The notes beneath the pieces were generated by a model that saw only the letters and a program-made list of their open reading frames with translations, searched no databases and had not been told where the DNA came from. From Cepaea nemoralis (Eukaryota > Mollusca > Gastropoda > Stylommatophora > Helicidae): a stretch of 64,000 nt of DNA. A program made the position numbers and the translations under genes. Below, in pieces: positions 23,641 through 55,948 of the stretch (position 1 is its first letter; the number at the start of each line of letters is the position of its first letter). The stretch lies in assembly GCA_014155875.1 (NCBI GenBank), contig JACEFZ010027757.1, positions 124,001 to 188,000 of the forward strand, in the 5' to 3' direction.

Positions 23641-24281
<641 letters not shown>

Positions 24282-31585: not shown

Positions 31586-31639
<54 letters not shown>

Positions 31640-36629: not shown

Positions 36630-36738
36630 TCATGGATTGGCTGGATAAGGATTGGGGCTGACCTCATTTGTTATCAATGTTTCTTTCAACTCCACATCAT
36701 CCCCTCTGGCTCTGGATATCATAGTGTCTCTGTCGGCT
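36630..36738 (-). CDS. CACFD1: Flower (calcium channel flower homologue), terminal coding exon
   Basis: The minus-strand exon starts at 36738 after a polypyrimidine tract and acceptor (tttcatctgttgcag) and ends at a TGA at 36632-36630. Its first base completes the lysine codon begun in the exon at 45652-45759. It adds 35 residues (ADRDTMISRARGDDVELKET ...), ending NPYPANP. The polar tail directly after ALGKK fits the cytosolic C-terminus of Flower proteins. The intron before it is 8913 bp and holds the 60-bp satellite, SINE1 copies and other repeats. No alternative reading explains the in-phase join. Confidence 0.85.
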
Positions 36739-37122
36739 CTGCAACAGATGAAACAAGATCAATCAAAAATAAGGTTGCTGTCACAATGCTAATACAGCTT
36801 GGGTTTTTGTGGGATGCCAAACTTATACAGCTCATAAATCAGCAGTTACAAACATCTCTTGTCATATCGACAAACACAGCTGTCTCATCACACACCACAG
36901 GCACCCACCAGACTACAGGCACCACCAGAACCCACTTCAGTCTCACAGCTTTGGACGTAATCTCACTTGGCTACTGTCTGTCATGGCTAGCCACTATGAT
37001 TCAGATTGCCAAATTTAACCGGAAATATATTTGCGAATTTGTTCGGTAACTATGTTTTGTGTCTCCAATTTAAGGAGATTTAGAGTACTCATGATGTTAA
37101 ATTCCCTGATTATTTCAAGATC

Positions 37123-37376
37123 GCCGGTCTCTCTGGCCGAGGGGTTACAACACTTTCTCCATAATCCCGTTTATCACGCAGAGTCTCGTAGCGGGAGAGA
37201 ACTGGGAGCGGTTCGACCCCCGCTGGTGACTTGCGGGATACTGAGCCGGCCACTCAGAAAGCAATGGCAAACTACTGAGCGTAATCTTGCCAAGAAATCA
37301 ACAGACAGCTGAAAGATGCTGCTGTTGACAGCGATGTCCTGTAAAGGATATGCAAAAAAAAATTTAAAAAAAAAAA
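37123..37376 (+). repeat. SINE1 copy with an 11-bp TSD (best preserved)
   Basis: Flanked by ATTTCAAGATC (37112-37122 and 37377-37387). Head: gccggtctctctggccgagg with A-box ctggccgaggggtta and B-box ggttcgacccc. Body: gagccggccactcagaaagc, aatggcaaactactgagcgt, gctgttgacagcgatgtcct, then an A-rich tail. It lies in the last flower intron, antisense to the gene. Confidence 0.95.
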
Positions 37377-37439
37377 ATTTCAAGATCACGTTAAAAAAGG
37401 GACCGATTACTTTAAATAGTTTTTCCCTCCTCGGTTTAC

Positions 37440-38270
37440 GTTGTGTACATCTCGTGTTGCTAGAATTTGTTTCCTGCACAGAAATACAGAGTGACTTTTT
37501 CAGACGTAAGTAGACCCAAAAATCACGTTGTGTGTAGATTTTTATTATTCTAGTATGTATTATTAGATTTAGCATCTATTTTTACGTAAAATGTGTAATT
37601 TTTGACTATTAAAGTTGGGGGGAGGTGGCATCCCAAACTAAAATGTAAAATGAAGATTGCGCGCTGTTAACGTGATATTTTAATGGCGGGAAATAGCCGC
37701 TTCCTTGTCATACTCCAGCGATGACTATCTAATATTGTTATGGATTGTTCACAGCAATCTGCATGCCAATAAACACATGTTTGCATTCAACATCAATTGT
37801 AGTATTTGTGTGTAATTTTTCATCACACTACACGGTCTCGGTGGTTTATTTTTGGGTAACTTTTCATCATGACGTAACTCAGACTCAGGTCTAGCTTTGT
37901 GTTCTGAATTTCAGGCACTTCAGGAATCCTTGTTATACCAGAGAACCAGGCTACCTATTCTAAGTGGTGAGTAAACCCATAAATACCGTTTTATGAGACG
38001 TATTACATTGTTCTGCTATGTATTATTAAATTAAATTTAGCATCCATTTTTACGTGTATTTTGTAATTTTCGACCATTTAAGTTGGCAGCCAATCTCACA
38101 CTGAAATTATGAAGATCACATGCTGTTTTCCTTGTCATATTCCAGCTATGACCATTTAATATTGTTATGGAATATTCAGATCGACTAACATGATAATGAA
38201 TGCATGTGTACATTCAATGCCCATTATTGTATTTATGTGTAATTTTTCATCACTCTACAAGGACAAGATC
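37440..38270. repeat. Diverged tandem duplication (about 480-bp offset)
   Basis: 37530-37860 and 38010-38265 share, in order, tgtattatta, agcatc(t/c)atttttacgt, cttgtcatactccagcgatg and its variant, taatattgttatgga, and gtgtaatttttcatcac. Each copy is preceded by a splice-donor-like sequence followed by agaccc/aaaccc (gtaagtagaccc at 37506; gtgagtaaaccc at about 37967). It may be duplicated intron sequence or an unknown element. Confidence 0.6.
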
Positions 38271-39839
38271 ATTGATAATTTTGCAACTTTTTAATGCAAA
38301 TGCTATGGTAAAAATGAATCTATGTTCACGGCATTGCACTAACAGTCAGCATGCACTGTAAGCTCCTGCTGACTGATGTCATCACAGCATGGCGTGCCAC
38401 GTGTATAATCTGTGTGTGTGTGTGTATATATATAATAGGAAGCAGGTATCTTCCCTTTAGTTAGAAAACATCCGCAGTTGTAAACTCCCTTGGTGTCTGT
38501 GTTACCGACAGTGGTGTGAGTGTGTAGGTCACATTTTGTCAAAGGGTAAAATAGTATTTTGCTCTTTGTTCATATTAAATGATAAAGTGATACACAAACT
38601 TTAGTATTTCAGCTTAGAATTGACCTACAGACTTGAATAAGGTACCATTAGATTTGTTTTTTCAAGAGGTATCCAAATATGCAGGTTACATAATTAAAAA
38701 GAAATTTAGAAAATGTTACTAAAGTGTCTAGTCATGGCGTAAATACTCCGCAAGGCTAGTCTCAAAAAGAATCTAGCTCAATACACATAATGTCATGGAG
38801 AAAGGGGGACATTACTCTACAGTCATAACTCAACCAAGCCAGTGACAGTTATCCCTTGGCAGACAATGCTAAAGTGCTTTGAAGAAACAAGCTGATGTAA
38901 TAGCAGTATTAAATTTCCTGAAAAGACAGCAAGCACAATTGTTTGCCATGCATCATGATTGAAAACAGACTGCCTGACAAAAAGCCATGAATGAATGACC
39001 CGAAAACAAGAAGCAGACCGTAAGCTTACTATAATACGATCACAAGTATCAAAATGGACGTTGCGGTCAAAGCCTTTGTCAGTACAGAAACAACAATCAC
39101 AAACTGATAAAACAACATAAAGTACACTGCAAAATATGGAAATTTTAGAGTAACTCAACATAAAAAAAGAAACTGCTGAAGAAACTAAAGACGAGCAAAT
39201 GCCTTTGTACATTGGACACATTAAATGACATTAAAAACCCTCTGAAAACTATAGTGGAGGGGAAAAGTGAAAGCTAAAGAGTTAAAGGGCGCCAAAGATA
39301 AAAAGAGACAGATATCTATCATCAAAAGGCATATGAAAAGCAGTCTGTCAGAGTGTAGAAGTAAATCAAGAGACAGATATAAAGATACACTCATAAAGAC
39401 AGACACACATTGTAGGTGAGTCAAATAAAGGAGCCTTTCCAAAGCTTGAAGGGTTTTAGATATCTGGCGATAACCCCACAATTCCATAGACCAATCAGCT
39501 TTCACTTTGTGGAAGTCAAAGAAATTAAACTGAGCACACAACTTAGAATATTTAATTCTAACGTTAAATCATTTACTGCTGCATGGATCAGAAACATGTA
39601 GAACAACGAAAATGATTATGAATAAACTATCAACATGCACTAATTGTTGAATGTGCAAAATAGAAGGAATACAATATGATAAAATCAAACAAGTGGAGCT
39701 CATGGAAAGAACTAAAGTATCAGTGAACTAAGGGGTGAAGAAACGATGCTGGCGATGGATAGACCATACATTGAAAAAACCTGATAATAGTATAACTAGA
39801 AAAGCCTCAGTCTGAAACCCAGGGGAACAGAAATAAAGT
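38271..39839. other. Intronic sequence, no gene seen
   Basis: Within the last flower intron. A short GT/TA run sits at 38409-38440. The rest shows no repeat family shared with other parts of the window and no exon-like frame. Confidence 0.45.
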
Positions 39840-40075
39840 TAGTTGCATTTCCTTTACAGGATGTAGCAGTCAACTCCAGCATTTTTATGGCTGTTTGTGA
39901 TTCCTGGGCAAGCTTACTTTCAGTAGTTTGCCATTACTTTCTGAACAGCCGGCACTCATACCATTATATGAAAACCAATGCAAGGCGGTCTGTTTCCAAA
40001 TTTCCCGCAGCTGTGTTTTGAACGCGGTATGTGAGATACAAATTGCATTCATAACCCCTTTACAAGTGCCGGCAA
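39840..40075 (-). repeat. SINE1 copy next to the 60-bp array
   Basis: Plus strand: gttgcatttcctttacagga, ccagcatttttatggctgtt, gtttgccattactttctgaa, then the reversed head ending ccctttacaagtgccggc. A possible imperfect TSD is gaaataaag / gaaatcaag. It lies 66 bp from the start of the satellite. Confidence 0.87.
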
Positions 40076-40141
40076 AAGAAATCAAGGAAGACCTAAAATT
40101 TTATGGAGATAAGAAGCAGAAATAGAAATGAACAGCATGGG

Positions 40142-43100
40142 AAGGACACTGACAGAGCAGGGAGACTCACTAGCGTCATGGCTAGACACACGTCTGCCAA
40201 CCAGGACACTGACAGAGCAGGGAGCCTCGCTAGCACCATGGCTAGACACCCATCTGCCAACCAGGACAATGACAGAGCAGAGAGACTGGCTAGCGTCATG
40301 GCTAGACACCCGTCTGCCAACCAGGACACTGAGAGAGCAGGGAGCTTCACTAGCATCATGGCTAGACACCAGTCTGCCAACCAGGACACTGAGAGAGCAG
40401 GGAGCTTCACTAGAATCATGGCTAGACACTTGTCTGCCAACCAGGACACTGACAGAGCAGGGAGCCTCACTAGCATAATGGCTAGACACCCGTCTGCCAA
40501 CCAGGACACTGACAGAGCAGGGAGCCTTGCTAGAGTCATGGCTAGACACCCATCTGCCAACCAGGACAATGACAGAGCAGAGAGACTCGCTAGCGTCATG
40601 GCAAGACACTTGTCTGCCAACCAGGACAATGACAGAGCAGGGAGCCTTGCTAGAGTCATGGCTAGACACCCATCTGCCAACCAGGACAATGACAGAGCAG
40701 GGAGCCTCGCTAGCATCATGGCTAGACACCCATCTGCCAACCAGGACAATGACAGAGCAAAGAGACTCACTAGCGTCATGGCTAGACACCCGTCTGCCAA
40801 CCAGGACACTGAGAGAGCAGGGAGCTTCACTAGCATCATGGCTAGACACTCGTCTGCCAACCAGGACACTGACAGAGCAGGGAGCCTCACTAGCATCATG
40901 GCTAGACACTCTTCTGCCAACCAGGACACTGACAGAGCAGGGAGCTTCACTAGCATCATGGCTAGACACTTGTCTGCCAACCAGGACACTGATAGAGCAG
41001 GGAGCCTCACTAGCATCATGGCTAGACACTTGTCTGCCAACCAGGACACTGAGAGAGCAGGGAGCTTCACTAGCATCATGGCTAGACACTCTTCTGCCAA
41101 CCAGGACACTGACAGAGCAGGGAGACTCACTAGCGTCATGGCTAGACACACGTCTGCCAACCAGGACACTGACAGAGCAGGGAGCCTCGCTAGCACCATG
41201 GCTAGACACCCATCTGCCAACCAGGACAATGACAGAGCAGAGAGACTGGCTAGCGTCATGGCTAGACACCCGTCTGCCAACCAGGACACTGAGAGAGCAG
41301 GGAGCTTCACTAGCATCATGGCTAGACACCAGTCTGCCAACCAGGACACTGAGAGAGCAGGGAGCTTCACTAGAATCATGGCTAGACACTTGTCTGCCAA
41401 CCAGGACACTGACAGAGCAGGGAGCCTCACTAGCATAATGGCTAGACACCCGTCTGCCAACCAGGACACTGACAGAGCAGGGAGCCTTGCTAGAGTCATG
41501 GCTAGACACCCATCTGCCAACCAGGACAATGACAGAGCAGAGAGACTCGCTAGCGTCATGGCAAGACACTCGTCTGCCAACCAGGACAATGACAGAGCAG
41601 GGAGCCTTGCTAGAGTCATGGCTAGACACCCATCTGCCAACCAGGACAATGACAGAGCAGGGAGCCTCGCTAGCATCATGGCTAGACACCCATCTGCCAA
41701 CCAGGACAATGACAGAGCAAAGAGACTCACTAGCGTCATGGCTAGACACCCGTCTGCCAACCAGGACACTGAGAGAGCAGGGAGCTTCACTAGCATCATG
41801 GCTAGACACTCTTCTGCCAACCAGGACACTGACAGAGCAGGGAGCCTCACTAGCATCATGGCTAGACACTTGTCTGCCAACCAGGACACTGACAGAGCAG
41901 GGAGCTTCACTAGCATCATGGCTAGACACTTGTCTGCCAACCAGGACACTGACAGAGCAGGGAGCCTCACTAGCATCATGGCTAGACACCCGTCTGCCAA
42001 CCAGGACACTGACAGAGCAGGGAGCTTCACTAGCATCATGGCTAGACACTTGTCTGCCAACCAGGACACTGACAGAGCAGGGAGCCTCACTAGCATCATG
42101 GCTAGACACCCGTCTGCCAACCAGGACACTGACAGAGCAGGGAGCTTCACTAGCATCATGGCTAGACACCCGTCTGCCAACCAGGACACTGATAGAGCAG
42201 GGAGCCTCACTAGCATCATGGCTAGACACCCGTCTGCCAACCAGGACACTAACAGAGCAGGGAGCCTCACTAGCATCATGGCTAGACACCTGTCTGCCAA
42301 CCAGGACACTAACAGAGCAGGGAGCCTCACTAGCATCATGGCTAGACACCCGTCTGCCAACCAGGACACTAACAGAGCAGGGAGCCTCACTAGCATCATG
42401 GCTAGACACTTGTCTGCCAACCATGACACTTACAGAGCAGGGAGCCTCACTAGCATCATGGCTAGACACTTGTCTGCCAACCATGACACTGACAGAGCAG
42501 GGAGCCTCACTAGCATCATGGCTAGACACTTGTCTGCCAACCATGACACTGACAGAGCAGGGAGCCTCACTAGCATCATGGCTAGACACTTGTCTGCCAA
42601 CCATGACACTAACAGAGCAGGTAGCTTCACTAGCATCATGGCTAGACACTTGTCTGCCAACCAGGACACTGATAGAGCAGGGAGCTTCACTAGCATCATG
42701 GCTAGACACTTGTCTGCCAACAATGACACTAACAGAGCAGGGAGCTTCACTAGCATCATGGCTAGACACTTGTCTGCCAACCAGGACACTAACAGAGCAG
42801 GGAGCTTCACTAGCATCATGGCTAGACACTTGTCTGCCAACCAGGACACTAACAGAGCAGGGAGCTTCACTAGCATCATGGCTAGACACTTGTCTGCCAA
42901 CCATGACACTAACAGAGCAGGGAGCTTCACTAGCATCATGGCTAGACACTTGTCTGCCAACCAGGACACTAACAGAGCAGGGAGCCTCACTAGCATCATG
43001 GCTAGACACTTGTCTGCCAACCATGACACTAACAGAGCAGGGAGCTTCACTAGCATCATGGCTAGACACTTGTCTGCCAACCAGGACACTGATAGGGCAG

Positions 43101-44700
43101 GGAGCTTCACTAGCATCATGGCTAGACACTTGTCTGCCAACCAGGACACTGACAGAGCAGGGAGCTTCACTAGCATCATGGCTAGACACTTGTCTGCCAA
43201 CCAGGACACTGACAGAGCAGGGAGCTTCACTAGCATCATGGCTAGACACTTGTCTGCCAACCAGGACACTGACAGAGCAGGGAGCTTCACTAGCATCATG
43301 GCTAGACACTTGTCTGCCAACCAGGACACTGACAGAGCAGGGAGCTTCACTAGCATCATGGCTAGACACTTGTCTGCCAACCAGGACACTGACAGAGCAG
43401 GGAGCTTCACTAGCATCATGGCTAGACACTTGTCTGCCAACCATGACACTAACAGAGCAGGGAGCTTCACTAGCATCATGGCTAGACACTTGTCTGCAAC
43501 CAGGACACTGACAGAGCAGGGAGCTTCACTAGCATCATGGCTAGACACTTGTCTGCCAACCAGGACACTGACAGAGCAGGGAGCTTCACTAGCATCATGG
43601 CTAGACACTTGTCTGCCAACCAGGACACTGACAGAGCAGGGAGCTTCACTAGCATCATGGCTAGACACTTGTCTGCCAACCAGGACACTGACAGAGCAGG
43701 GAGCTTCACTAGCATCATGGCTAGACACTTGTCTGCCAACCAGGACACTGACAGAGCAGGGAGCTTCACTAGCATCATGGCTAGACACTTGTCTGCCAAC
43801 CAGGACACTGACAGAGCAGGGAGCTTCACTAGCATCATGGCTAGACACTTGTCTGCCAACCAGGACACTGACAGAGCAGGGAGCTTCACTAGCATCATGG
43901 CTAGACACTTGTCTGCCAACCAGGACACTGACAGAGCAGGGAGCTTCACTAGCATCATGGCTAGACACTTGTCTGCCAACCAGGACACTGACAGAGCAGG
44001 GAGCTTCACTAGCATCATGGCTAGACACTTGTCTGCCAACCATGACACTGACAGAGCAGGGAGCCTCACTAGCATCATGGCTAGACACTTGTCTGCCAAC
44101 CATGACACTGACAGAGCAGGGAGCCTCACTAGCATCATGGCTAGACACTTGTCTGCCAACCAGGACACTGACAGAGCAGGGAGCTTCACTAGCATCATGG
44201 CTAGACACTTGTCTGCCAACCAGGACACTGACAGAGCAGGGAGCTTCACTAGCATCATGGCTAGACACTTGTCTGCCAACCAGGACACTGACAGAGCAGG
44301 GAGCTTCACTAGCATCATGGCTAGACACTTGTCTGCCAACCAGGACACTGACAGAGCAGGGAGCTTCACTAGCATCATGGCTAGACACTTGTCTGCCAAC
44401 CAGGACACTGACAGAGCAGGGAGCTTCACTAGCATCATGGCTAGACACTTGTCTGCCAACCAGGACACTAACAGAGCAGGGAGCTTCACTAGCATCATGG
44501 CTAGACACTTGTCTGCCAACCAGGACACTGACAGAGCAGGGAGCTTCACTAGCATCATGGCTAGACACTTGTCTGCCAACCAGGACACTGACAGAGCAGG
44601 GAGCTTCACTAGCATCATGGCTAGACACTTGTCTGTCAACCAGGACACTAACAGAGCAGGGAGCCTCACTAGCATCATGGCTAGACACCCGTCTGCCAAA
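40142..44700. repeat. 60-bp satellite array, about 76 units, in a flower intron
   Basis: Head-to-tail 60-bp units containing cactagcatcatggctagac, tgtctgccaaccaggacact and gacagagcaggg. 40141-41100 (16 units, 960 bp) is repeated almost base for base from 41101 to about 41820. From about 43080 to 44640 the units are nearly identical. A single base is missing at 43498 (ctgcaac for ctgccaac), which shifts the phase downstream. As 60 is a multiple of 3 and the unit has few stops, long frames exist on both strands (up to about 1545 codons), but they are repeat artefacts. The final unit runs into a SINE5 body. Confidence 0.97.
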
Positions 44701-44890
44701 CAGGAAGTCATGGGTTCAAGCCTCAGCTGGGCGAATTTGAATTTTTAAAAAGTTACCTGGGCGCCCAGGTTGACCCAGCCTAAATTGAGCACTAAGAATC
44801 TCTTGGGAAGTCACGGCACGGGCACGATACTGACCCCGTCACCTGCAGAATGTCGATAGGTCTATACAAATATGTGTCTATCACCACATG
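44640..44890 (+). repeat. SINE5 copy whose head grades into the 60-bp array
   Basis: The last array unit continues as ctgccaaacaggaagtcatg then ggttcaagcc (B-box-like) and a body ccaggttgacccagcctaaa, gatactgaccccgtcacctg, gtctatacaaatatgtgtct. The same body is found at 49600-49720 and 55057-55110, so this is the only non-repeated part of a SINE whose A-box and anticodon region forms the array unit. Confidence 0.85.
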
Positions 44891-45295
44891 CCCCATGCAT
44901 CTTACGGTCTGTACAAAAGTCCTCTACTTTTTATTAATGGACAAAGGTGTATGCAATAGCTGCGGGTGGGTGGGTCTGGAGGGGGTGATGGATCTGGAGT
45001 GAGTGGATTGAGGGCCTTTGCCTCATTGGTGACAGAAGGCAAAAGAAGAAGCAGAACCAACATTTGATGGTGTTGTGGTCGATATCACGCCAGTGCTTTT
45101 ACTTCTCGGAATATTGCCTGGTAGACATTTTCAAATGGGCACTCAGGTTTATACATATATACAAACTGGCACCTGGCAGCTGACAGTGTGCTACAAAGTG
45201 CCTTATAAAAAAAATAAAACACTTTAACTACAACCTGTGGCGGTAGCGAGCGTGACTGATGAGACCAATTTGCACGGTTAAATGTTCGCTGACAA
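44891..45295. other. Intronic sequence, no gene seen
   Basis: G-rich patch at 44965-45010 (gggtgggtgggtctggaggg). No repeat family or exon recognised. Confidence 0.4.
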
Positions 45296-45309
45296 TGGAT
45301 TCATGTGAA

Positions 45310-45556
45310 AAAGTCTCTTAAAAGTCGACAGGGTTGACTTCATTGCACTGGGAGTTATCCCATATGGCTCGGTCTCTTTCCGCAGTGAACTGCCGAAAGC
45401 TTCTCACAAAGCACAAATTCCGTAGCTCCAGTGACGACCCCCCAGGAGTCTTTTTAAAAAATACACTCGTGAACCGAAGGATGCGGCTCACAATAGAACC
45501 CACAACCTTTGGAGCCAGAGTCAGACGGCTTGACCACTTCGCCACGGAGACTCCCT
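45310..45556 (-). repeat. SINE2 copy with a 14-bp TSD
   Basis: Flanked by TGGATTCATGTGAA (45296-45309 and 45557-45570). Minus strand: head ggagtctccgtggcgaagtg with A-box tggcgaagtggtca and a B-box region, body gagctacggaatttgtgctt, end cttttaagagact. It lies 96 bp from a flower exon. Confidence 0.93.
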
Positions 45557-45651
45557 TGGATTCATGTGAACACTAGCGTATATAAATATATGTGCAAGAG
45601 AATACAATATCTGCATCTTCAAGTAATTGTCATTGGTAGAAAAATACTTAC

Positions 45652-45759
45652 TTCTTTCCTAAAGCAATTAACCCATATATAACTCCTGAAGCTATCAACA
45701 GGGCACTACCACAAGCAGTTGTCACGGAGAAACACAACAAAGGTGGCAGAAATGGAGGT
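45652..45759 (-). CDS. CACFD1: Flower homologue, internal coding exon (membrane segment and ALGKK)
   Basis: A 108-bp minus-strand exon from 45759 (acceptor ttttttaacag) to 45652 (donor gtaagtat). The first base completes an isoleucine codon with the upstream exon, and the last two start a lysine codon. It encodes PPFLPPLLCFSVTTACGSAL followed by LIASGVIYGLIALGK. The pattern A-I-P-P..L-C-F..GS.LI..G..YG..ALGKK is the signature of Flower/CACFD1, a four-pass vesicle membrane protein linked to Ca2+-dependent endocytosis and, in Drosophila, cell-fitness signalling. SVTTACGS replaces the usual small-residue segment. Confidence 0.9.
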
Positions 45760-46029
45760 CTGTTAAAAAAAACAAATACAAATTAGGACACATATATAAA
45801 GCAACATTTTACAAAATATAATTTAACAAATAAGTGAAAAATTAGTAACATAAATCTATAGAGATGTGAATGCATGCTTTATGAGAAATATGTAGATATT
45901 TGTATGTTAGCAAAAACATTCTGGGTTGTACAACTCGTAAAACACAAGAAATTTTTTAAAACGTTCCCTCGCTATGAACTCAAGCGTAGTCAACACACAT
46001 GCTACTACTTCAAGTGAACTGGGCTGTGT
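45760..46029. other. Intronic sequence, no feature
   Basis: Start of the 3568-bp flower intron on the genomic right of the exon. AT-rich, nothing recognised. Confidence 0.5.
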
Positions 46030-46215
46030 TTTGCATGTGGATTAGCTGTCCCTATTACCAGTGTCCCTTGCAATCAGGGAAACTTCTGAGGTACTTGTAA
46101 TTTACATTCTCAAGTTAAGAACAAGAAGTTAACATTTTAGTCCAACTAACCAGTGTAGGGGTTGAACCCGCTACCTTAAGTTTAAGAGCATGCACTCTTT
46201 TCCATGATGACCTCC
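46030..46215 (-). repeat. SINE4 copy
   Basis: Plus strand: gtggattagctgtccctatt, accagtgtcccttgcaatca, gtaggggttgaacccgctac, then the reversed head ending tgatgacctcc. Matches 1-168 and 56820-57000. Confidence 0.85.
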
Positions 46216-46627
46216 AAGAAATGAATAATAATAATAACAAAAACAATAATTCCTAAGCTCATTCACTGTCAGATTTGTAATACAAATGGAGGAAAAGCTT
46301 TATCAGAAATAATTGGTGGCAGGCAAGTCAGCAAAATGTAAACAGTCTGATAGAAAATGAAAATAGTAAGGTATGGTATCTGTGACTCCTGCTAAAAAGT
46401 GACAGATAATGAACATGGACAGTGGTCATACCTTACAACAAACTCAAATTCATTAAATGTGTGGAAAATAACAATAATAATAACATAAAATTAAGGTAAG
46501 ATATGTACACTGTGTCTTGTGTTTATTAACTCTGACTTGCTTGCAGGCGTCACACAAGCCTGCTTTCATTTTGTATTGTTATATCCTGCTGCTGCCATTA
46601 CTTCTGTGATCTGTAAATGGTCTTGTT

Positions 46628-46990
46628 GTCATCATCATCCAGTGCCTTGCGGGCTGGCTTGGGCAATCATGCTTCTCCACAAATTGCAATCTCCGGCGGC
46701 CTGGATCAACTTGTGTGTTCACTCCCTTCCATGCTATGACCCGACTGTCAATAATCTTCTCACGCAGTCTTCCTCTACCTCTCTTTCCACAGATCTGTCT
46801 GATTGTCACAATATTTCTCAATGTTTGTCTTCTCATAACGTAGCCAACAAATTATGACAGTTTCTTTCTGATGTTTGTGGTAAGTTGTCTTTGCGACTTA
46901 GCCTCCCTCAAAATGCTGATTGCACATTTTGGCTGTCAAATTAATTTTCAGCATTCTTCTATAAAACCACATCTCCAAGGCTTGCAGGGA
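46628..46990 (-). pseudogene. LINE J C-terminus and 3' end
   Basis: Minus strand: MRRQTLRNIVTIRQICGKRG, RGRLREKIIDSRVIAWKGVN, then a Q-F-V-E-K-H-D region and the GATGATG tail (catcatcatcc on the plus strand). Upstream (46860-46990) is decayed coding sequence. The family matches 17335-17560. Confidence 0.75.
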
Positions 46991-47084
46991 TTTTTTTCAC
47001 CTGGTCTTGTTGTATGATTGCTTAATCCTCTGGAAGAGTGAGCTTACCCTGAAAGGTGCTGGCATCTATCAGAGTAAGCCTGGT

Positions 47085-48225
47085 GCAGAAACCTTTCACA
47101 CAACCCCATACTAAAGCACCAGCTGTGTGCAGACTACAGAGCTCTCAATCTCCAGAGACCTTTCACACAACCACACACTAAAGCACCAGCTGTGTGCAGA
47201 CTACAGAGCTCTCCTTCCCCAGAGATCTTTCACACGACCCCATACTAAAGCACCAGCTGTGTGCAGATTACAGAGCTCTCCTTCCCCAGAGACCTTTTAC
47301 ACAACCCCATACTAAAGCACCAGCTGTGTGCAGACTACAGAGCTCTTCTTCCCCAGAGACCTTTCACACAACCCCATACTAAAGCCCCAGCTGTGTGTAG
47401 ACTGCAGAGCTCTCCTTCCCCAGAGACCTTTTACACGACCCCATACTAAAGCACCAGCTGTGTGCAGACTGCAGAGCTCTTCTTCCCCAGAGATCTTTCA
47501 CACAACCCCATACTAAAGCACCAGCTGTGTGCAGACTGCAGAGCTATTCTTCCCCAGAGATCTTTCACACAACCCCATACTAAAGCACCAGCTGTGTGCA
47601 GACTACAGAGCTCTCCTTCCCCAGAGATCTTTCACACAACCCCATACTAAAGCACCAGCTGTGTGCAGACTACAGAGCTCTCCTTTCCCAGAGATCTTTC
47701 ACACAACCCCATACTAAAGCACCAGCTGTGTGCAGACTGCAGAGCTCTCTTTCCCCATAGATCTTTCACACAACCCCATACTAAAGCACCAGCTGTGTGC
47801 AGACTGCAGAGCTCTCCTTCCCCAGAGATCTTTCACACAACCCCACACTAAAGCACCAGCTGTGTGCAGACTGCAGAGCTCTTCTTCCCCAGAGATCTTT
47901 CACACAACCCCATACTAAAGCACCAGCTGTGTGCAGACTGCAGAGCTCTTCTTCCCCAGAGATCTTTCACACAACTCCATACTAAAGCACCAGCTGTGTG
48001 CAGACTGCAGAGCTCTCCTTCCCCAGAGATCTTTCACACAAACCCATACTAAAGCACCAGCTGTGTGCAGACTGCAGAGCTCTTCTTCCCAGAGACCTTT
48101 CACACAATCCCCATACTAAAGCACCAGCTGTGTGCAGACTGCAGAGCTCTCCTTCTCCAGAGACCTTTCACACAACCCCACACCAAAGCAGCAATTGTGT
48201 GCAGACTACAGAGCTCTCCTTCCCC
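47085..48225. repeat. 67-bp minisatellite, about 17 units, in a flower intron
   Basis: Unit: actaaagcaccagctgtgtg, cagactacagagctctcctt, ccccagagacctttcacaca. Every second frame gives overlapping 62-codon ORFs, which are artefacts. The flanks (47020-47085 and 48226-48440) match 53010-53240, where the same segment occurs only once. Confidence 0.95.
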
Positions 48226-48445
48226 ACCCCAAGTTCAGAAACCAGAGGGGTGTGCAAATCCAGCACTGAAACTTCACATTTGCACACTGCATGTTGGGAT
48301 GTAACCAGACCATGATTCAGTACAGCACTTACAGCCTGGCTGGGGTTAGGCCTGGGGTTGGTCATGTTTCCTCTGAGGGTTTGAGGTATTTCATTGTCAA
48401 CAGACTCCAGCCCAAAGCTCTGAGGCAGATGAGCACATGCAAGAC
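48226..48445 (+). repeat. Right part of the dispersed element that carries the 67-bp array
   Basis: aagttcagaaaccagagggg resembles aagctcagaaaccattggca at 53190. 48300-48420 (gtaaccagaccatgattcag, catgtttcctctgaggg, actgtcaacaacc-like text) resembles 55120-55160 and 55515-55590, which flank the 30-bp array. Confidence 0.6.
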
Positions 48446-49170
48446 AATATGTCAGGAACTATGCCAAGAAGTAAGAGGAAGGAATGCTAACAGCTTAAAA
48501 AAATTGCTTAAAAGTTGACAGGGTTGACTTCATTGCACCGGGTTTTATCCCATATGGCTCGGTCTCTTTCCGCAGCGCGGAAAGCGTCGCACAAAGCACG
48601 AACTCCGTAGCCCTAGCGACGACCCACAGGAGTCTCCGAAAAATTTAACTCATGAACCGAAGGACGCGGCCCGGAATCGAACCCACAACCTCCGGAGCCC
48701 TAGTTAAACGGCTTGACCACTTCACCATGAAGACTCCTGAATGCTAACAGCAAGCTTCAATATGTCAGGAACTATGTCAAGAAGCAGGAGGAGGGAATGC
48801 TAACTGCGAGCTTCAATATGTCAGGAACTACGTCAAGAAGCAGAAGGAGGGAATGCTAACTGCAAGCTTCAATATGTCAGGAACTATGTCAAGAAGCAGA
48901 AGGAAGGAATGCTAACTGCAAGCTTCAATATGTCAGGAACTATGTCAAGAAGCAGAAGGAGGGAATGCTAACTGCAAGCTTCAATATGTCAGGAACTATG
49001 TCAAGAAGTAGACGGAGGGAATGCTAACTGCAAGCTTCAATATGTCAGGAACTATGTCAAGAAGTAGACGGAGGGAATGCTAACTGCAAGCTTCAATATG
49101 TCAGGAACTATGTCAAGAAGTAGACGGAGGGAATGCTAACTGCAAGCTTCAATATGTCAGGAACTATGCC
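48446..49170. repeat. 56-bp minisatellite interrupted by a SINE2
   Basis: Unit: gaatgctaactgcaagcttc, aatatgtcaggaactatgtc, aagaagtagacggag. Exact 56-bp offsets occur at 48795, 48851 and 48907. The first unit lies left of the SINE2 insertion, the remaining seven to eight on its right. Confidence 0.95.
48495..48738 (-). repeat. SINE2 copy with a 13-bp TSD inside the 56-bp array
   Basis: Flanked by GAATGCTAACAGC (48482-48494 and 48739-48751), which is array sequence. Minus strand: gagtcttcatggtgaagtgg, B-box-like gggttcgattccgg, body and an end in cttttaagc. The duplicated site shows the insertion came after the array's first units existed. Confidence 0.95.
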
Positions 49171-49186
49171 AACTCTGCTAACTGCA

Positions 49187-49207
49187 CACACACACACAGA
49201 GCGAGAG

Positions 49208-49281
<74 letters not shown>
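49187..49281. repeat. (AC)n/(GA)n microsatellite near a flower exon
   Basis: CA repeats then GA repeats, ending 46 bp from the exon's 5' splice site (minus strand), so the intron begins with a long CT run in transcript sense. Confidence 0.96.
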
Positions 49282-49286
<5 letters not shown>

Positions 49287-49327
49287 ACTCAATATATGAC
49301 CGAATATTTATAAAGTAAGTCACTCAC

Positions 49328-49453
49328 ATTGCATAAGCTATGGCCTTCTGCCAGTACGTTCTCCTCTCACTGAACCGACTGATTGGTTGAATGAAGTCCA
49401 GGAACTGGCAACAACACGGAGCTTCCATGATTATCACAAAAAACCCCAGCAAC
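49328..49453 (-). CDS. CACFD1: Flower homologue, internal coding exon with the MEAPCC motif
   Basis: A 126-bp minus-strand exon from 49453 (acceptor tgtctttgcag) to 49328 (donor gtgagtga). It starts with the last base of a codon, gives 41 full codons and ends with two bases (AT) that join the next exon as ATA. It encodes LLGFFVIIMEAPCCCQFLDF followed by a polar loop (ISRFSERRTYWQKAIAYA). The glutamate in the membrane segment before APCC is the conserved acidic residue implicated in Ca2+ permeation of Drosophila Flower. The upstream exon should end with two bases completing a codon with G; I did not find it between 49454 and 64000. Confidence 0.9.
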
Positions 49454-49504
49454 CTGCAAAGACAAGTGCACAATGTGTTACTACCTACACACAGGTCAAG
49501 GCAG

Positions 49505-49720
49505 CAGCAGTAGCGTAGTGGCTGGCCACTCCTCTGCTGTCCCAGTGATCAGGGGTTCAACCTGCAGTGGAGTGGACTGAAAGTTGTACACTTGACCTCG
49601 GCTTCCAGGTCAACCCAGCCTAAAATGGCTACCAGGAAATGTCTGGGGAAGTAAAGGTGGTTAGTGTGGTACTGACCTTATCACACATGAGTGCTGATTG
49701 GTCTATAAAACATATGTCTA
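49505..49720 (+). repeat. SINE5 copy
   Basis: Head agcagtagcgtagtggctgg (A-box-like) and caggggttcaacc (B-box-like), body ttccaggtcaacccagccta, aatgtctggggaagtaaagg, tactgaccttatcacacatg, end tgattggtctataaaacata. The segment from 49571 is duplicated 201 bp further on at 49772. Confidence 0.87.
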
Positions 49721-50350
49721 GTAACATGAGTGCTGATTGGTTTATAACACATATGTCTGCAACATGAGTGGAGTGGACTGAAAGTTGTACACTTGACCTC
49801 GGCTTCCAGGTCAACCCAGCCTAAAATGGCTACCAGGATATGTCTGGGGAAGTAAAGGTGGTTAGTGTGGTACTGACCTTATCACACATGAGTGCTGATT
49901 GGTCTATAAAACATATGTCTAGTAACATGAGTGCTGATTGGTTTATAAAACATATGTCTAGCAACATGAGTGCTGATTGGTTTATAAAACATATGTCTAG
50001 CAACATGAGTGACGATTGGTTTATAAAACACAGGTCTAGCAACATGAGTGCTGATTCATCTATAAAACATATGTCTAGCAACATGAGTGATGATTGGTTT
50101 ATAAAACACAGGTCTAGCAACACGAGTGCTGATTGGTCTATAAAACTTCTGTCTAGCAACATGAGTGATGATTGGTCTATAAAACATCTGTCTAGCAACA
50201 TGAGTGATGATTGGTCTATAAAATATATGTCTATCAACATGAGTGATGATTGGTCTATAAAACTTCTGTGCCTAGTAACATGAGTGATGATTGGTCTATA
50301 AAACATCTGTGTCTAGCAACATGAGTGATGATTGGTCTATAAAACATATG
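49690..50350. repeat. 39-bp minisatellite in a SINE5 tail
   Basis: Units of 39 bp (aacatgagtgctgattggtc, tataaaacatatgtctagc) begin in the tail of the first SINE5 copy, are interrupted by a second SINE5 body (49772-49915), then run for about 12 more units. Several units vary (aggtctagc, tctgtgtctagc). Confidence 0.93.
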
Positions 50351-50383
50351 TCAAGCAACATATGCCAATGCACCTTTGAGGCA

Positions 50384-50552
50384 TGTATAGGGTGTATTTT
50401 TAATGACTGCAGTTTCTGAAAATAGTGCCGTTCCAAGTTTTGTATTTACCTACTGTGGAGTTCATGTAACACAATGCACAATAGTAGGTAAATACAAAAC
50501 TTGGAACGGCAATATTTTCAAAATTACAGTCATTAAAAATACACCCTATACA
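50384..50552. mobile_element. Foldback MITE with arms of about 70-75 bp
   Basis: Starts tgtatagggtgtatttttaa and ends with its reverse complement ttaaaaatacaccctataca. The arms match nearly throughout (gccgttccaagttttgtatt / aatacaaaacttggaacggc), with a spacer of about 30 bp. No coding capacity. The TSD is unclear. Confidence 0.9.
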
Positions 50553-50679
50553 AGGAATGTGTTATTTTAATTATACACATGTAATGGGACTAAATGGGCT
50601 GGAGTTGAAGATAGTGGATGGTCTCTCTAAGGAGGTGAAGTCTGTTACAGTTAAGCTTCATTTTTATTACAGGCCAGGT

Positions 50680-51420
50680 GAGTATAAGAGAAAATGAACA
50701 AACTGACTGGGCCAGGCTACTGTGGAAAGTGGATGAGAATGGGCCAGGTGGATATACAGAATGCTCTCAGAGAGGCAGGGAAATTAAGCAAATCGCATTA
50801 CGACTGTGTATCTGCTGCCTTAAACAGAATATCAAGTAAAAAGGAGTGATGCCAAATAAGAGCGCTATGTTTGGAACCAAAGAAGAATTGTCAAACAACA
50901 CTGGTCTCGCCAGCTGCTACACAATAAAAGACAGAGGTTGAAAAACCTAAACATAATTCAGGAGCCAGTCCCTTTTTCTCAGGAACCAGCATATTTCTTT
51001 GGCAGACACTGGCTAAGAAAATTACTGGAAATTCAAGTGCCAGGCAGACATGTTTAGGAGCCATGGTGACAGAGCACCTGGATTTTTCTACCCCTGCCAA
51101 AGGAGATACAGAACAGGGTATCTGAGCACTTATAGTTTGATGTGCAGTGAGGATAATCTGACAACTGACTAACTAACTAAAACTACATAACTAACTACCT
51201 ACCTACCTACCTAATCAATCAACCAACCACCTACCTATCTAACCAACCAAACAACTAAATAACTAACTCTAATTTACTTACTCAAACTAAATAATTAACT
51301 AATTAACTACATAATCAATCAACCAACCACATACCTACCTACCTACCTAACTAACCAACAAACTAACTACCTCAAATTGAACACCTGACCACCTACCTAA
51401 CCAACCAACCAATTAATGTA
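50680..51420 (+). pseudogene. LINE RNase H end with a degenerate (AACT)n tail
   Basis: VSIRENEQTDWARLL at 50690-50735 resembles the RGNEQADRLA motif of LINE RNase H, and the frame decays to about 51160. 51166-51420 is a long, varied AACT/CCTA/AACC repeat, the expanded tail, as at 18361-18465. Confidence 0.6.
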
Positions 51421-51519
51421 ATTGGACTGGTAACTGTGTCATGGAAAGCAAACTGCCAGGACCTCACTTATATATTAGCAACCTAAAGTAGTCAGGCACA
51501 GGGTACATGGTTTGGCTTG

Positions 51520-51860
51520 TAAAGCAGCCATGGTGGCACACTGGTTGGCATATTTGCCTACAAAGACAATGGTTATGGTTTAATCAAATGCAGTGGCAGG
51601 ATTGCTTTTTTTTTTACCCGTAGAGCTATGGTGTTGAAGTAAAAGAAAAAACACAAAGGATCTTTTTATATGTCTTGAGGCCTAGTGGGCCAATGGTCCT
51701 AGCCATATATTTTTCTGAACTGAATTGGCACTCTACAGGTAATGTGATCAACTTTATGGTCAAAACATATGGTCAACATTATGGGGCCAACATTACGGTC
51801 AATATTAATATTTATGGACCGAATTGGCACTCTACAGGTAATGTGGTCAACATCATTTTA
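51520..51860 (+). repeat. tRNA-like SINE head and a two-copy repeat
   Basis: gcagccatggtggcacactg and ttatggtttaatcaaatgc resemble A and B boxes. Further on, aattggcactctacaggtaa occurs twice (51724 and about 51822). Confidence 0.5.
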
Positions 51861-51894
51861 GTCACCTTCATTTCTCAGGAAATTCCCTGGTGCA

Positions 51895-52018
51895 CATTTA
51901 TGCTGATATGACCTCGGGGACAAGATCAATTTTTAAAAATGCCCTGATGGGGACTTGACCACACAACCACCCGGCTGGCAGGCAAGCATGCTAGTCACTG
52001 CACTCATCTCATAGCATA
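51895..52018 (-). repeat. SINE5-like head, minus strand
   Basis: Minus strand: gtgcagtgactagcatgctt, gcctgccagccgggtggttg and tggtcaagtccccatc (A box, anticodon arm, B box order). 52019-52282 holds no named feature. Confidence 0.6.
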
Positions 52019-52282
52019 GGTACAATAACTTGCAGAATTTTCTGGGAACTGCCTGGGACAGAGAGGTGGCAAGGAAGAGAATGGGCCACCTAACCTCAGT
52101 TTACCATGGTCCAGAATATGTGAAAACTTAACCCCTCATGCCCTAACAGCAGTATTTGTCATGGGGGCCGCCACTGGCATTTTTAATGTCATATGTGAAT
52201 CTCTACCTCCTCGCACAATAAAGCAGACAAAAGACAACAAGTGACTGCCTAGCTTTTCTACATTATAAAATGTTATTGGCAT

Positions 52283-52562
52283 GTCCCGTACTGGACTTTG
52301 CAATCAACCCCAGTATTTAATGGCGGCTTATGATTTAATCATCGTCATCATGTACTGTCAGCTCTACGGCGAAGGAGTTACAGACGCAGTTCGTAATACC
52401 GCATACCCACACTGCCCACCTTGCGTTTGTTTTTTTACAAAATGGTATGGGTGCCGGTCGTTCAGAAAGCAATGGCAAACTACTGAATGTAAACTTGCCA
52501 AGAGATTCCAACAGCAAACAATTCTGGTGTTGACTGTGATGTCCTGTAAAGGATATGCAACT
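52283..52562 (+). repeat. SINE1 copy with an inverted fragment at its 5' side
   Basis: 52358-52562 is a plus-strand SINE1 (ggtgccggtcgttcagaaag, tggtgttgactgtgatgtcc). 52283-52330 (caatcaaccccagtatttaa, cggcttatgattt) resembles the SINE1 3' end in the opposite orientation. Confidence 0.75.
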
Positions 52563-52570
52563 AACTTAAC

Positions 52571-52790
52571 ATCATGTACCGTGCCGATAAGCGCGGGTGG
52601 TCATGTTTCGCCATCTTACCAGAGTCATGGATTAGCTTTGTGTTCTCATCTAAACCATACCACATGGCCAAGCCATCCAGGTATTTACTTCTCTGCCTTC
52701 CCCTTGTTCTTTTCCCTCAATCTTGCCAGTTGTCACCAAGTTCTTCAATTTATTTCTTTTCATAACATGTCCAAAACATTGTCATTTAAC
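52571..52790 (-). mobile_element. LINE H 3'-end fragment
   Basis: Plus strand: gtgccgataagcgcgggtgg, ccatggccaag-like text, tttacttctctgccttcccc, tgccagttgtcaccaagttc, ttttcataacatg. Adjoins the SINE1 tail. Confidence 0.8.
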
Positions 52791-53009
52791 AATGCTAGTT
52801 CAGTTTGTTAGTACTTTCTAAATGGCTAAAGTCTTATAATATCAAAATAAACAGAAAATGATCTGCTTCCAAATCCCCAGTGACCGAGTACGAACCCTGG
52901 ACTCAGTATGTCGGGAAGTTATGAAACTCCACGTTTCACTATCCCCAAAGCCACAGATGGTTTCTATATTATAACAGCAGAACAAGAGCACATCACAAAA
53001 AGCTGTAAT

Positions 53010-53240
53010 TGGTAAATCTTCTGGAATAGTGAGTTTTAACTAAAGTCCAGTGCATTGGCCTGCAGATCACCCAAAACCTGACAAGAACTTGCTTCAACTG
53101 GAGTGAGGCTGTTGCAAGGATTCTCCTCCCAACTCATTACTGAAGCACCATCTGCATGTAAACTGTGCTGCTGAGTTCTCCTTCCCTTCTACAAGCTCAG
53201 AAACCATTGGCATGTGCAAGACTGGATGCTAAGAAGCCAG
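53010..53240 (+). repeat. Dispersed element with one copy of the 67-bp array unit
   Basis: tctggaatagtgag, ctgaagcaccatctgcatgt, gctgagttctccttcc and aagctcagaaaccattggca match, in order, the left flank, unit and right flank of the array at 47020-48290, but the unit appears once. Confidence 0.65.
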
Positions 53241-53266
53241 GGAGTCGGTTGTTCATAGCATACTGT

Positions 53267-54237
53267 GTCAGGTCTTAGTCAGATATGACTGAGCTACTGT
53301 ATGACAGTAAGTCAGGTCTTAGTCAGATATGACTGAGCTACCGTATGACAGTAGACGGTACTACCTGCTTTCTGTCAGCGCCGAATGTTTGGCGGCGCTT
53401 ACCAAACCCGACACCCCACATTGTGCCACGGCTTCGGGCGGAAGAGCACAATTGGGAGGGTACTAGCCTTATCCTGGTGCAAGGTAATGCAACCCAAAGA
53501 CAAAATAAGTCATGGCAGGGCAGACCAGGCCCTAAGCCTTGGTTGGCAGCTGGTCTAGGATCGAAGCTCCGACAGGCGGACAGTTAGAGCATTGCTTTGC
53601 TGATCCGGCAGCTTCTGCAGCTTGTCTTGTTCCAGATTATAGGTGTTAACTTTCCTCTGGAGTGAACTAGGCAGGCCGAGAGAGGGATCATGCTGCATGG
53701 GCAACACATGGTTTCTTTAATTTAGCCCAGGCTTTGTGCAATGGAGAGTTGATCAGGTTGTGTGACGGTGTATTCCATGCTCAGTCTTCGTAGACTTAGA
53801 TGGATAGGACACATTAGGAGGATGGATGATTGTAGAATACCAAAGGACATCTTTTTTGGTGAATTACAGATGGGTAGGAGATCTCAGGGTCGGCCTCTAC
53901 TACGATACAAAGATGTGTGTAAGCGGGACATGATTGATACAGGCATTGATAATGCACATTGGGAGCACGACGCCGCTGAACGTGTTGCATGGAGGGCAAC
54001 TATCAGAAATGGAATAAAGACAAAGGAGAAAATGATTGCAGATAAAGCACACACAGAGCGTGAGAGACGTAAGATGGTGCAAAATGGTGGAAATGACCAT
54101 GTTTTAAACATGCACCTACTGTGGGCAAACATTTGCAGCAAGAATTGGCCTTACCAGCCATGGATCATAGTTATTAAAGCCTTTTTGAAGCACAATGTAC
54201 CAAACTATCATCTGTCGAGGTGGAAAGGTGCCAATGT
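53267..54237 (+). pseudogene. LINE L deletion derivative: 5' head joined to the C-terminal end
   Basis: 53267-53750 is the LINE L 5' region, with a duplicated 45-bp start (gtcaggtcttagtcagatat twice). At about 53750 it joins the ORF2 C-terminus: LRWIGHIRRMDDCRIPKDIF, GRRSQGRPLLRYKDVCKRDM, IDNAHWEHDAAERVAWRATI, then a decayed C2H2 finger (hLLWANICSKN region) and 3' UTR to 54237. Endonuclease and RT are missing. Confidence 0.8.
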
Positions 54238-54239
54238 AA

Positions 54240-54800
54240 ACTGTATGACAGTAGACGGTACTACCTGCTTTCTGTTAGTGCCGAATGTTGGGTCTTAGAC
54301 AGATATGACTAAGCTACCTTATGACAGTAGACGGTACTACCCGCTTTCTATTAGCGCCGAATGTTGGGTTACGCTCACCAAAACTGACATCACACATTGT
54401 GCCAACGACTTTGGGCGGAGTAGCGCAATTGGGAGGGTACAAGCCTTATCCTGGTGTGAAGAAATGCAACCTAAAGACTACTAAGTGTCATGGCAGGGCA
54501 GACCAGGCCATAAGTCTTGGTTGGCAGCTGGTCTAGGATCGAAGCTCCGACAGCTTTGCTGATCCAGCAGCTTGTCTTGCTCAAGACATATTGGTGTTAT
54601 CTTTCCTCTGGAATAAACTAGGCAGGCCAAGAGAGAGATCATGCTGCATGGGCAACACATGGTTTCTACAATTCAGCCCAAACTTTGTGCTATGGAGAGG
54701 TAGAACCCCATCCCTGATCTTAACTGGTCTCAGAATCAAATCAGCACAATGTAACAAAATATCGTCTGTCAAGACAGCCAGCTGCCAGTCAGTCACAGAG
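54240..54800 (+). mobile_element. Second LINE L head-to-tail deletion derivative
   Basis: Begins tgtatgacagtagacggtac, repeats it after a short duplication at 54320, continues through the LINE L 5' region (gtacaagccttatcctggtg, tttgctgatccagcagctt) and ends in the 3' UTR motif atcgtctgtcaagacagcca near 54780. Confidence 0.75.
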
Positions 54801-54814
54801 GTAAGGTGACACAT

Positions 54815-55135
54815 TCCCTTTCCATTTTGTGAGACTAGCACAGTGACTAGATTGCTGGCCAGCCAGCCCGGTGGATGTGAAGAGACCTGGTGGCCATTTG
54901 TTATAACAAAATGAGGTGAGGTGGCCTATTCCCTTCCTTGCCACCTTTCCATTTTGTGAGACTAGCACAGTGACTAGTTTTCTGGCCTGCTAGCCTGGTG
55001 GTCATGGGTTCAAATCCCTATCAAAGCAGGTGTTATTTTTAATGGACCTGAGCTGCCAAGTCAACCCAGCCTCAAATGGCCACCAGAAAATGTCCTGGGA
55101 AGTAAATACAACCAGAATATAACCAGGTCAAGATT
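54815..55135 (+). repeat. SINE5 copy with a duplicated head
   Basis: The head region ttttgtgagactagcacagt, gactag occurs at about 54830 and 54952. After the second come B-box-like gggttcaaatcc and the SINE5 body aagtcaacccagcctcaaat, gtcctgggaagtaaat. The 30-bp array starts directly downstream. Confidence 0.85.
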
Positions 55136-55515
55136 CAGCCAGGCACACATAGACAGGTCATGATTCAGCCAGGGACACATAGACAGGTCATGATTCAGCT
55201 AGGCACACATAGACAGGTCATGATTCAGCCAGGCACACATAGACAGGTCATGATTCAGCCAGGCACACATAGACAGGTCATGATTCAGCCAGGCACACAT
55301 AGACATGTCATGATTCAGCCAGGCACACATAGACAGGTCATGATTCAGCCAGGCACACATAGACATGTCATGATTCAGCCAGGTACACATAGACAGGTCA
55401 TGATTCAGCCAGGCACACATAGACAGGTCATGATTCAGCCAGGCACACATAGACATGTCATGATTCAGCCAGACACACATAGACAGGTCATGATTCAGCC
55501 AGGCACACATAGACA
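55136..55515. repeat. 30-bp minisatellite, about 12 units
   Basis: Unit: cagccaggcacacatagaca, ggtcatgatt. Very regular from 55150 to 55515. 10-residue repeats in the open frames are artefacts. Confidence 0.96.
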
Positions 55516-55912: not shown

Positions 55913-55948
55913 TCCCTTTACTTTCACTCATTTTAAACTCAAGTGTAG

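What the first reader, a model, noticed from the sequence alone, without database searches (positions are those of the whole stretch)
40142..44890. 60-bp satellite made from the tRNA-like head of a SINE, still attached to the SINE body
The repeat unit has an A-box/D-arm-like part (actagcatcatggctagac) and an anticodon-arm-like part (tctgccaaccagg). After the last unit the sequence does not leave the element but continues into a B box (gggttcaagcc) and the body of SINE5 known from 49.6 and 55.1 kb. The simplest reading is that the box A to anticodon segment of one SINE insertion expanded in place about 76 times. If so, the array might present dozens of partial Pol III promoters.
Basis: partly seen in the sequence, partly recalled or inferred. 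Interest (0 to 1): 0.82.

Follow-up and report, generated by a model that had tools for sequence, protein, structure and literature searches.

The report
SINE-head tandem array in snail intron
Inside an intron of a probable gastropod mollusc, the front end of one copy of a short tRNA-like repeat element, together with about 20 bases next to it, has been copied head-to-tail 76 times in place; this is a clear example of a process already described in reptiles and limpets, and it does not look like a row of working promoters.

Summary
40143-44701 is an array of 76 units, 75 of 60 bp and one of 59 bp. After the last unit the sequence continues in register into the B-box region and body of an interspersed SINE-like repeat ("SINE5"). 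A profile built from four other SINE5 copies in the window, array locus excluded, matches 44663-44873 without a break (E 1.4e-25). The consensus unit alone outscores all 10,000 shuffles, in the expected register. Paralogues at 49.5 and 52.0 kb carry a single, unexpanded head.

Corrections: only about 40-43 bp of the unit is SINE head. The first ~20 bp resemble no other copy compared and are probably locus flank. The unit is weak as a Pol III promoter: exact A-box match in 2 of 76 units, no B box with fewer than two mismatches in the array, and a T5 run 19 bp after the B box of the attached copy. tRNA origin rests on weak evidence. SINE5 copies are not significantly enriched near minisatellites.

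Best reading: a SINE-derived satellite formed in place by tandem duplication and later unequal exchange or slippage, probably in the last coding intron of a gastropod flower/CACFD1 gene. New member of a known kind. No copy from outside the window could be examined.

The parts
40143..44701 (+). array of 76 units of 60 bp (one of 59 bp at 43443): ~20 bp non-SINE + ~40 bp SINE5 head
   Evidence: TRF; unit-by-unit cut
40143..41102 (+). first 16 units, whose first ~13 recur 960 bp downstream (from 41103): higher-order block duplication
   Evidence: only 2 mismatches (40611, 40852) between i and i+960 from 40143 to 40910
43143..44701 (+). units 51-76, the most homogenised part of the array, next to the SINE body
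   Evidence: 25 full units, 5 distinct, 98.6% mean pairwise identity, against 90.1% for units 1-16
44642..44701 (+). trailing unit, differing from the consensus at 5 positions
44663..44705 (+). SINE5 head part of the trailing unit plus AGGA (profile positions 16-58)
44670..44680 (+). box A-like TAGCATCATGG (one mismatch to the recalled consensus)
44713..44723 (+). box B-like GGTTCAAGCCT (one mismatch to the recalled consensus)
44742..44746 (+). T5 run, possible Pol III stop 19 bp after box B
44706..44905 (+). rest of SINE5 copy A (B box, body); 3' end not fixed
   Evidence: profile hit to 44873; alignment with copy B
40111..40121 (+). AAGAAGCAGAA, repeated exactly at 45046-45056: candidate target-site duplication or chance
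   Evidence: not tested against a null
49490..50361 (+). SINE5 copy B: single unexpanded head, body with its own 39-bp array and 201-bp duplication
51709..52020 (-). SINE5 copy D: single unexpanded head; tail segment partly repeated (by eye)
   Evidence: profile hits 52020-51808 and 51752-51709; sequence
54817..55106 (+). SINE5 copy C with an extra headpiece C' (54817-54879) upstream; a 30-bp array begins 18 bp after the body
45651..45773 (-). flower/CACFD1 exon match upstream of the array (gene on - strand); exact exon start not fixed
   Evidence: tblastn with P0121, E 2e-14; Pfam PF10233 on 45651-45731 below cut-off, E 0.05
36687..36738 (-). probable last flower exon (3' end not fixed); puts the array in an intron
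   Evidence: tblastn with P0122, E 1.4 alone but right order and strand, preceded by ttgcag

Best explanation
One copy of a SINE-like interspersed repeat (SINE5) lies probably in the last coding intron of a flower/CACFD1 gene of a gastropod. A 60-bp stretch, made of about 20 bp outside the recognised head and about 40 bp of head up to the anticodon-arm-like part, was once duplicated in tandem (inferred). The duplication then grew in place to 76 units by unequal exchange or replication slippage, including at least one block duplication of about 13 units at a distance of 960 bp and a late homogenisation at the 3' side (pattern shown, process inferred). The trailing unit was left joined to the B box and body. 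It is a SINE-derived satellite or minisatellite: passive intronic DNA (inferred), with at most one complete though degenerate Pol III promoter at its 3' edge.
For: Array and unit structure. Profile made without the array locus runs unbroken from unit position 22 through the last junction into the body, E 1.4e-25; consensus unit alone in the same register, 0 of 10,000 shuffles as good. Copies B and D in the same window carry one head and stand for the unexpanded state. The 5' entry and the internal junctions differ from the 3' exit just as one 60-bp duplication predicts: flank-AGGA-CACTG on entry, CCAACC-AGGA-CACTG inside, CCAAAC-AGGA-AGTCAT at exit. Block duplication and homogenisation gradient. 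A known process: SINE-derived satellites with a longer terminal unit continuing into the SINE (PMC10702118, parts 1-4 of 5 read).
Against: The unit matches copy C poorly (113 of 2000 shuffles as good), and the trailing unit alone scores only 0.0 bits (4 of 10,000 shuffles as good). Shared AGGA at the breakpoints is not beyond chance (17 of 239 breakpoint pairs have 4 or more). No other individual, species or genome-wide copy was seen: the genome search did not answer in 10 tries. Target-site duplication and 3' tail of the SINE copy were not settled, and 3 of 4 copies carry a T5 run after box B, so 'SINE' is itself provisional.
Confidence: 0.85

Rival explanations
1. The 60-bp satellite existed before and a SINE5 copy, or its body, came to lie beside it; the head similarity is chance or convergence.
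For: About 20 bp of the unit have no SINE5 likeness; the single-head comparison with C is not significant.
Against: A profile without this locus matches the consensus unit above all 10,000 shuffles and in the exact register needed to continue into the body; no other head lies between the array and the body of copy A.
Confidence: 0.06
2. The array spreads as a unit: SINE5 copies with multiplied heads are themselves retrotransposed, so the array came in ready-made.
For: A headpiece is also present twice at copy C (C' 54817-54879).
Against: No second copy of this 60-bp unit in the window (best match outside the array E 0.24); the unit includes probable non-SINE bases; 4.5 kb is far beyond SINE length; B and D have one head.
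Confidence: 0.04
3. The array is a functional Pol III or TFIIIC-binding platform kept by selection.
For: A box A-like motif sits at the same place in the 76 units: exact in 2, one mismatch in 68, two in 6; a second one-mismatch site lies in 65 of 76 units.
Against: No B box with 0 or 1 mismatch in the array; a T5 run follows the B box of the attached copy. Homogeneity follows position in the array, as neutral homogenisation would. Box consensuses are recalled.
Confidence: 0.05

Closest known systems
SINE-derived satellites (sSat1-3) of squamate reptiles, Vassetzky et al. 2023 (PMC10702118; parts 1-4 of 5 read)
   Same: Unit from a part of a tRNA-related SINE, shorter than the SINE, a few to hundreds of units (over 1200 at one locus); in most, a longer terminal unit running on to the SINE terminus; some units include 14-44 nt of unknown origin; longer arrays more homogeneous; locus-specific sub-variants.
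   Different: Other SINE family and phylum; unit is 60 bp, slightly under the ~70-290 nt stated there; only one locus seen; intronic, with chromosome position unknown.
PcH-sat of the limpet Patella caerulea, derived from a Nin-SINE (PMC11121367; passages read)
   Same: Satellite in a gastropod with a unit partly of SINE sequence and partly not.
   Different: 179-bp unit from the 3' part of Nin-SINE, lacking boxes A and B, about 10% of the genome, mainly pericentromeric; here the 5' head, one intronic locus known.
Minisatellites grown from Alu or mouse B1 copies, and Hy/Pol III and Xenopus satellite 1 from tRNA-related regions (table and reference list of the review PMC9659126; passages read)
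   Same: Tandem repeats seeded inside SINE or tRNA-related sequence.
   Different: Units, taxa and genomic scale differ; PMC10702118 judges the amphibian cases inconclusive as SINE-satellite links.

Membership tests
SINE-derived satellite (sSat) | at least four tandem units made of part of a SINE, shorter than the SINE | tested here: met
   76 units; unit positions 20-63 match profile positions 14-57; unit 60 bp against at least 211 bp of matched element. Depends on SINE5 being a SINE, which is provisional (rows below)
SINE-derived satellite (sSat) | longer terminal unit continuing into the SINE up to its end | tested here: met
   44663-44873 unbroken profile match on the 3' side; the exact 3' terminus of the element is not known
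SINE-derived satellite (sSat) | long arrays homogenised | tested here: met
   98.6% identity in units 51-76 against 90.1% in units 1-16
SINE-derived satellite (sSat) | many loci in the genome, subtelomeric bias | not testable with these tools
tRNA-derived SINE (for the SINE5 element) | dispersed copies on both strands | tested here: met
   A, B, C on + and D, E on -, with weaker pieces at 45.1, 32.9 and 31.4 kb
tRNA-derived SINE (for the SINE5 element) | boxes A and B at tRNA spacing | tested here: inconclusive
   A: one mismatch in each box; B: exact box A, two mismatches in box B; C: one mismatch in box A, exact box B; D: two mismatches in box B and no box A with 0 or 1 mismatch at the aligned place; consensuses recalled
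tRNA-derived SINE (for the SINE5 element) | recognisable tRNA homology | tested here: inconclusive
   default ARAGORN and Rfam: no tRNA; at 85% and 80% threshold a tRNA-Gly(GCC)-like call at 44663-44733, but 61 of 2000 shuffles also give a call at 80%; the calls in A and C begin at profile positions 16 and 15
tRNA-derived SINE (for the SINE5 element) | target-site duplications and a 3' tail | tested here: inconclusive
   only an 11-bp purine-rich repeat 40111/45046 beyond the recognised ends; tail not identified
tRNA-derived SINE (for the SINE5 element) | no early Pol III terminator (expected of an active SINE, not strictly defining) | tested here: not met
   T5 run after box B in 3 of the 4 copies examined there (A, C, D; not B); possibly decay or a leaky stop, so I call the element SINE-like and its membership provisional
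classical heterochromatic satellite DNA | abundant, long arrays, (peri)centromeric or subtelomeric | not testable with these tools
   one 4.6-kb array in a probable intron is all that is seen

The most novel reading that the evidence does not exclude
The gap between the anticodon-arm-like part and the B box may be a recurrent breakpoint that makes tRNA-like SINE heads natural seeds of satellites. Here two repeated headpieces in one window end there: the array at profile position 58 and the headpiece C' of copy C at 60-65, with box B at 66. The main snake sSat3 unit also has a border just before box B (it covers Squam3 positions 42-108 and includes box B; that box A lies outside it is my inference). 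The folding test gave no sign of a structural cause.
Probability: 0.1. Interest if true: 0.55.

Novelty: new member of a known kind. Interest (0 to 1): 0.3.

Why it matters
It is a clean case, in a probable gastropod, of how one insertion of a dispersed repeat turns into a satellite array: the array is still attached to the source element, and unexpanded copies of the same element lie within 10 kb as internal controls. It also shows that an array made of a tRNA-like head need not be a promoter array. If many loci in the genome show the same border, the origin of satellites from SINE heads could be studied locus by locus.

Tried and rejected
Association of SINE5 with minisatellites: 19 merged arrays of period 20 or more (from the 38 TRF rows; short-period rows dropped) against 8 SINE5 pieces; 2 of 8 overlap an array, 3 lie within 20 bp and 4 within 50 or 100 bp; random placement gives as many with P 0.55, 0.28, 0.11 and 0.14 (circular shift 0.56, 0.29, 0.15 and 0.19). 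No enrichment shown. The weak hit at 19.4 kb (its head differs), the second B repeat and C' were left out of the 8, and the 51.75-kb piece was counted with D.

Microhomology AGGA at the breakpoints: 17 of 239 breakpoint pairs 60 bp apart have 4 or more shared bases, so no support.

Strand secondary structure as driver: single unit z -0.61, dimers z -1.13 and -1.24, heads of C and B z 0.36 and -0.32; not remarkable.

Continuation of copy B past its 39-bp array: score 21, 271 of 1000 shuffles as good, so not shown. C after its 30-bp array: no convincing body match by alignment, not tested by shuffles.

Outside copies: a 20-base pattern of the body and a 20-base pattern of the unit gave 0 hits in viral contigs; the body pattern gave 1 hit in genome contigs, a Bacillus contig, taken as chance (about 0.5 expected by arithmetic). 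A search of the phage collection gave 1 match of 29 bases, E 0.9.

Literature: 7 answered searches. A molluscan SINE paper recalled by DOI is not held, so whether SINE5 is a named molluscan family is open.

Full report
WHAT IS THERE. The window holds a tandem array at 40143-44701: 76 units, 75 of 60 bp and one of 59 bp at 43443. Mean pairwise identity of the 75 full units is 92.9%, with 33 distinct sequences. Identity rises along the array: 90.1% in units 1-16, 90.5% in 17-32, 95.0% in 33-50 and 98.6% in 51-76 (25 full units, 5 distinct). The first ~13 units recur 960 bp (16 units) downstream with two mismatches from 40143 to 40910. Because 60 is a multiple of three, long reading frames run through the array on both strands (1547 codons on +, 1147 on -); I take them as by-products of the period.

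THE ELEMENT NEXT TO IT. Behind the last unit (44642-44701) the sequence goes on with AGGAAGTCATGGGTTCAAGCC and a body that recurs in the window. I built a profile from copies B (49.5 kb), C (55.0 kb), D (52.0 kb, minus) and E (7.4 kb, minus; body only), leaving the array locus out. It hits 44663-44873 at E 1.4e-25, profile positions 16-223, without a break at the array's end. It also finds weaker pieces at 54.82, 45.1, 32.9 and 31.4 kb (E 5e-10 to 2.5e-7) and marginal ones at 51.75 and 19.4 kb (E 6e-5 and 0.003).

IS THE UNIT REALLY THE HEAD. The consensus unit with AGGA scores 7.5 bits, above all 10,000 dinucleotide shuffles (best 4.1), with unit 20-63 on profile 14-57, the register needed to continue into the body. 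The trailing unit alone scores 0.0 bits, reached by 4 of 10,000 shuffles. Against single heads the result is uneven: B 0 of 2000 shuffles as good, D 13, C' 22, C 113. Unit bases 1-28 match the sequence upstream of none of the four other heads (1872, 4436, 1564 and 2272 of 5000 shuffles as good for B, C, C', D). I conclude that about 40-43 bp of the unit is SINE5 head and that the first ~20 bp are probably the old 5' flank.

HOW IT AROSE. Entry, internal and exit junctions fit a single 60-bp tandem duplication that later multiplied: CATGGGA-AGGA-CACTG at the 5' side, CCAACC-AGGA-CACTG inside, CCAAAC-AGGA-AGTCAT at the 3' side. The shared AGGA is no proof, as 17 of 239 breakpoint pairs share four or more bases. 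Copies B and D have one head each and serve as unexpanded paralogues. Copy B in turn has a 39-bp segment of the body expanded (12 copies, 49886-50361), which is single in A. Copy C has a second headpiece 127 bp upstream and a 30-bp array beginning 18 bp past the recognised body. This points to a genome prone to minisatellites rather than to a special property of the head: association of SINE5 with arrays is not significant (P 0.11 to 0.55 with random placement), and the unit does not fold unusually well.

POL III. With recalled consensus boxes, box A at unit 29-39 is exact in 2 of 76 units (TAGCATAATGG), has one mismatch in 68 and two in 6. No B box with 0 or 1 mismatch lies in the array; 23 places have two mismatches. 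Copy A has a one-mismatch box A at 44670 and a one-mismatch box B at 44713, followed by T5 at 44742; the array has no run of four T on either strand. So the array offers at best one degenerate promoter, at its 3' edge, preceded by 75 lone box A-like motifs. tRNA origin: no tRNA at default in ARAGORN and Rfam. At 85% and 80% thresholds, not at 90% or above, ARAGORN calls tRNA-Gly(GCC) at 44663-44733, but at 80% 61 of 2000 shuffles also give a call, and the window gives 52 calls, 21 of them on the minus strand of the array. The calls in A and C start at profile positions 16 and 15, which is mild support.

PLACE. Exons of a calcium channel flower/CACFD1 homologue lie on the minus strand at 55648-55722, 49327-49461 and about 45651-45773 (tblastn). 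Pfam PF10233 scores E 1.4e-10 on the second, 0.05 (below cut-off) on the third and nothing on the first. A C-terminal exon probably follows at 36738 (E 1.4 alone, but right order and strand and a ttgcag acceptor). The array is therefore most likely in the last coding intron. Organism: flower relatives with names are Bradybaena similaris and Lottia gigantea (2 named of 3 hits). For a reverse transcriptase in the window, 4 of the 120 listed relatives (of 188) bear organism names: Elysia chlorotica, Bradybaena similaris, Candidula unifasciata and the barnacle Amphibalanus amphitrite. Hence probably a gastropod; species unknown.

WHAT IS KNOWN. Vassetzky et al. 2023 (PMC10702118, parts 1-4 of 5 read) describe SINE-derived satellites in squamates, most of which end in a longer unit that continues into the SINE, some with 14-44 nt of unknown origin in the unit. 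That is the anatomy found here. PcH-sat of a limpet derives in part from a Nin-SINE (PMC11121367, passages). The finding is thus a new member of a known kind. The authors of PMC10702118 leave open whether such satellites occur beyond squamates. I make no claim of first report; only seven answered searches of one open library were made.

LIMITS. No copy of SINE5 or of the unit outside the window was seen; the tool for the source genome did not answer in ten tries.

Noticed in passing
window 49558-50361: SINE5 copy B has its own in-place growth: a 201-bp duplication and 12 copies of a 39-bp body segment that is single in copy A.
   Followed up: partly
window 54817-54879 and 54942-55106: A headpiece (C') stands 127 bp before that of copy C, 91% alike over 58 bp, ending at profile 60-65, close to where the array unit ends; a 30-bp array starts 18 bp after C's body.
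   Followed up: partly
window 54908-54949 and 52102-52061: 42 bp at 88% identity (GAGGTGAGGTGGCC...) lie upstream of the heads of both C and D; not found upstream of A or B. A longer element or a shared target repeat.
   Followed up: no
window 48482-48750: A copy of another SINE-like family (48497-48738, minus strand) sits beside a 56-bp minisatellite, flanked by the exact 12-bp repeat GAATGCTAACAG (48482 and 48739, the only two in the window on +); further copies at 55946-56188, 45310-45554 and 24561-24790.
   Followed up: partly
window 50384-50552: Near-perfect inverted repeat (87% over 171 columns) of MITE type just after SINE5 copy B.
   Followed up: no
window 40111-40121 and 45046-45056: Exact 11-bp repeat AAGAAGCAGAA around the array plus SINE5 copy A; possible target-site duplication of a larger insertion, or chance in purine-rich DNA.
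   Followed up: partly
window 24111-24280 and 31586-31639: A G-rich run (168 G in 170 bases, longest pure stretch 73) and a pure C run of 54: unusual lengths, possibly sequencing or assembly effects.
   Followed up: no
window 11431-14207: Endonuclease and reverse transcriptase pieces of a non-LTR retrotransposon (PF14529, PF03372, PF00078).
   Followed up: partly
window 36687-55722, - strand: Exons of a flower/CACFD1 homologue spread over 19 kb of repeat-rich introns.
   Followed up: partly
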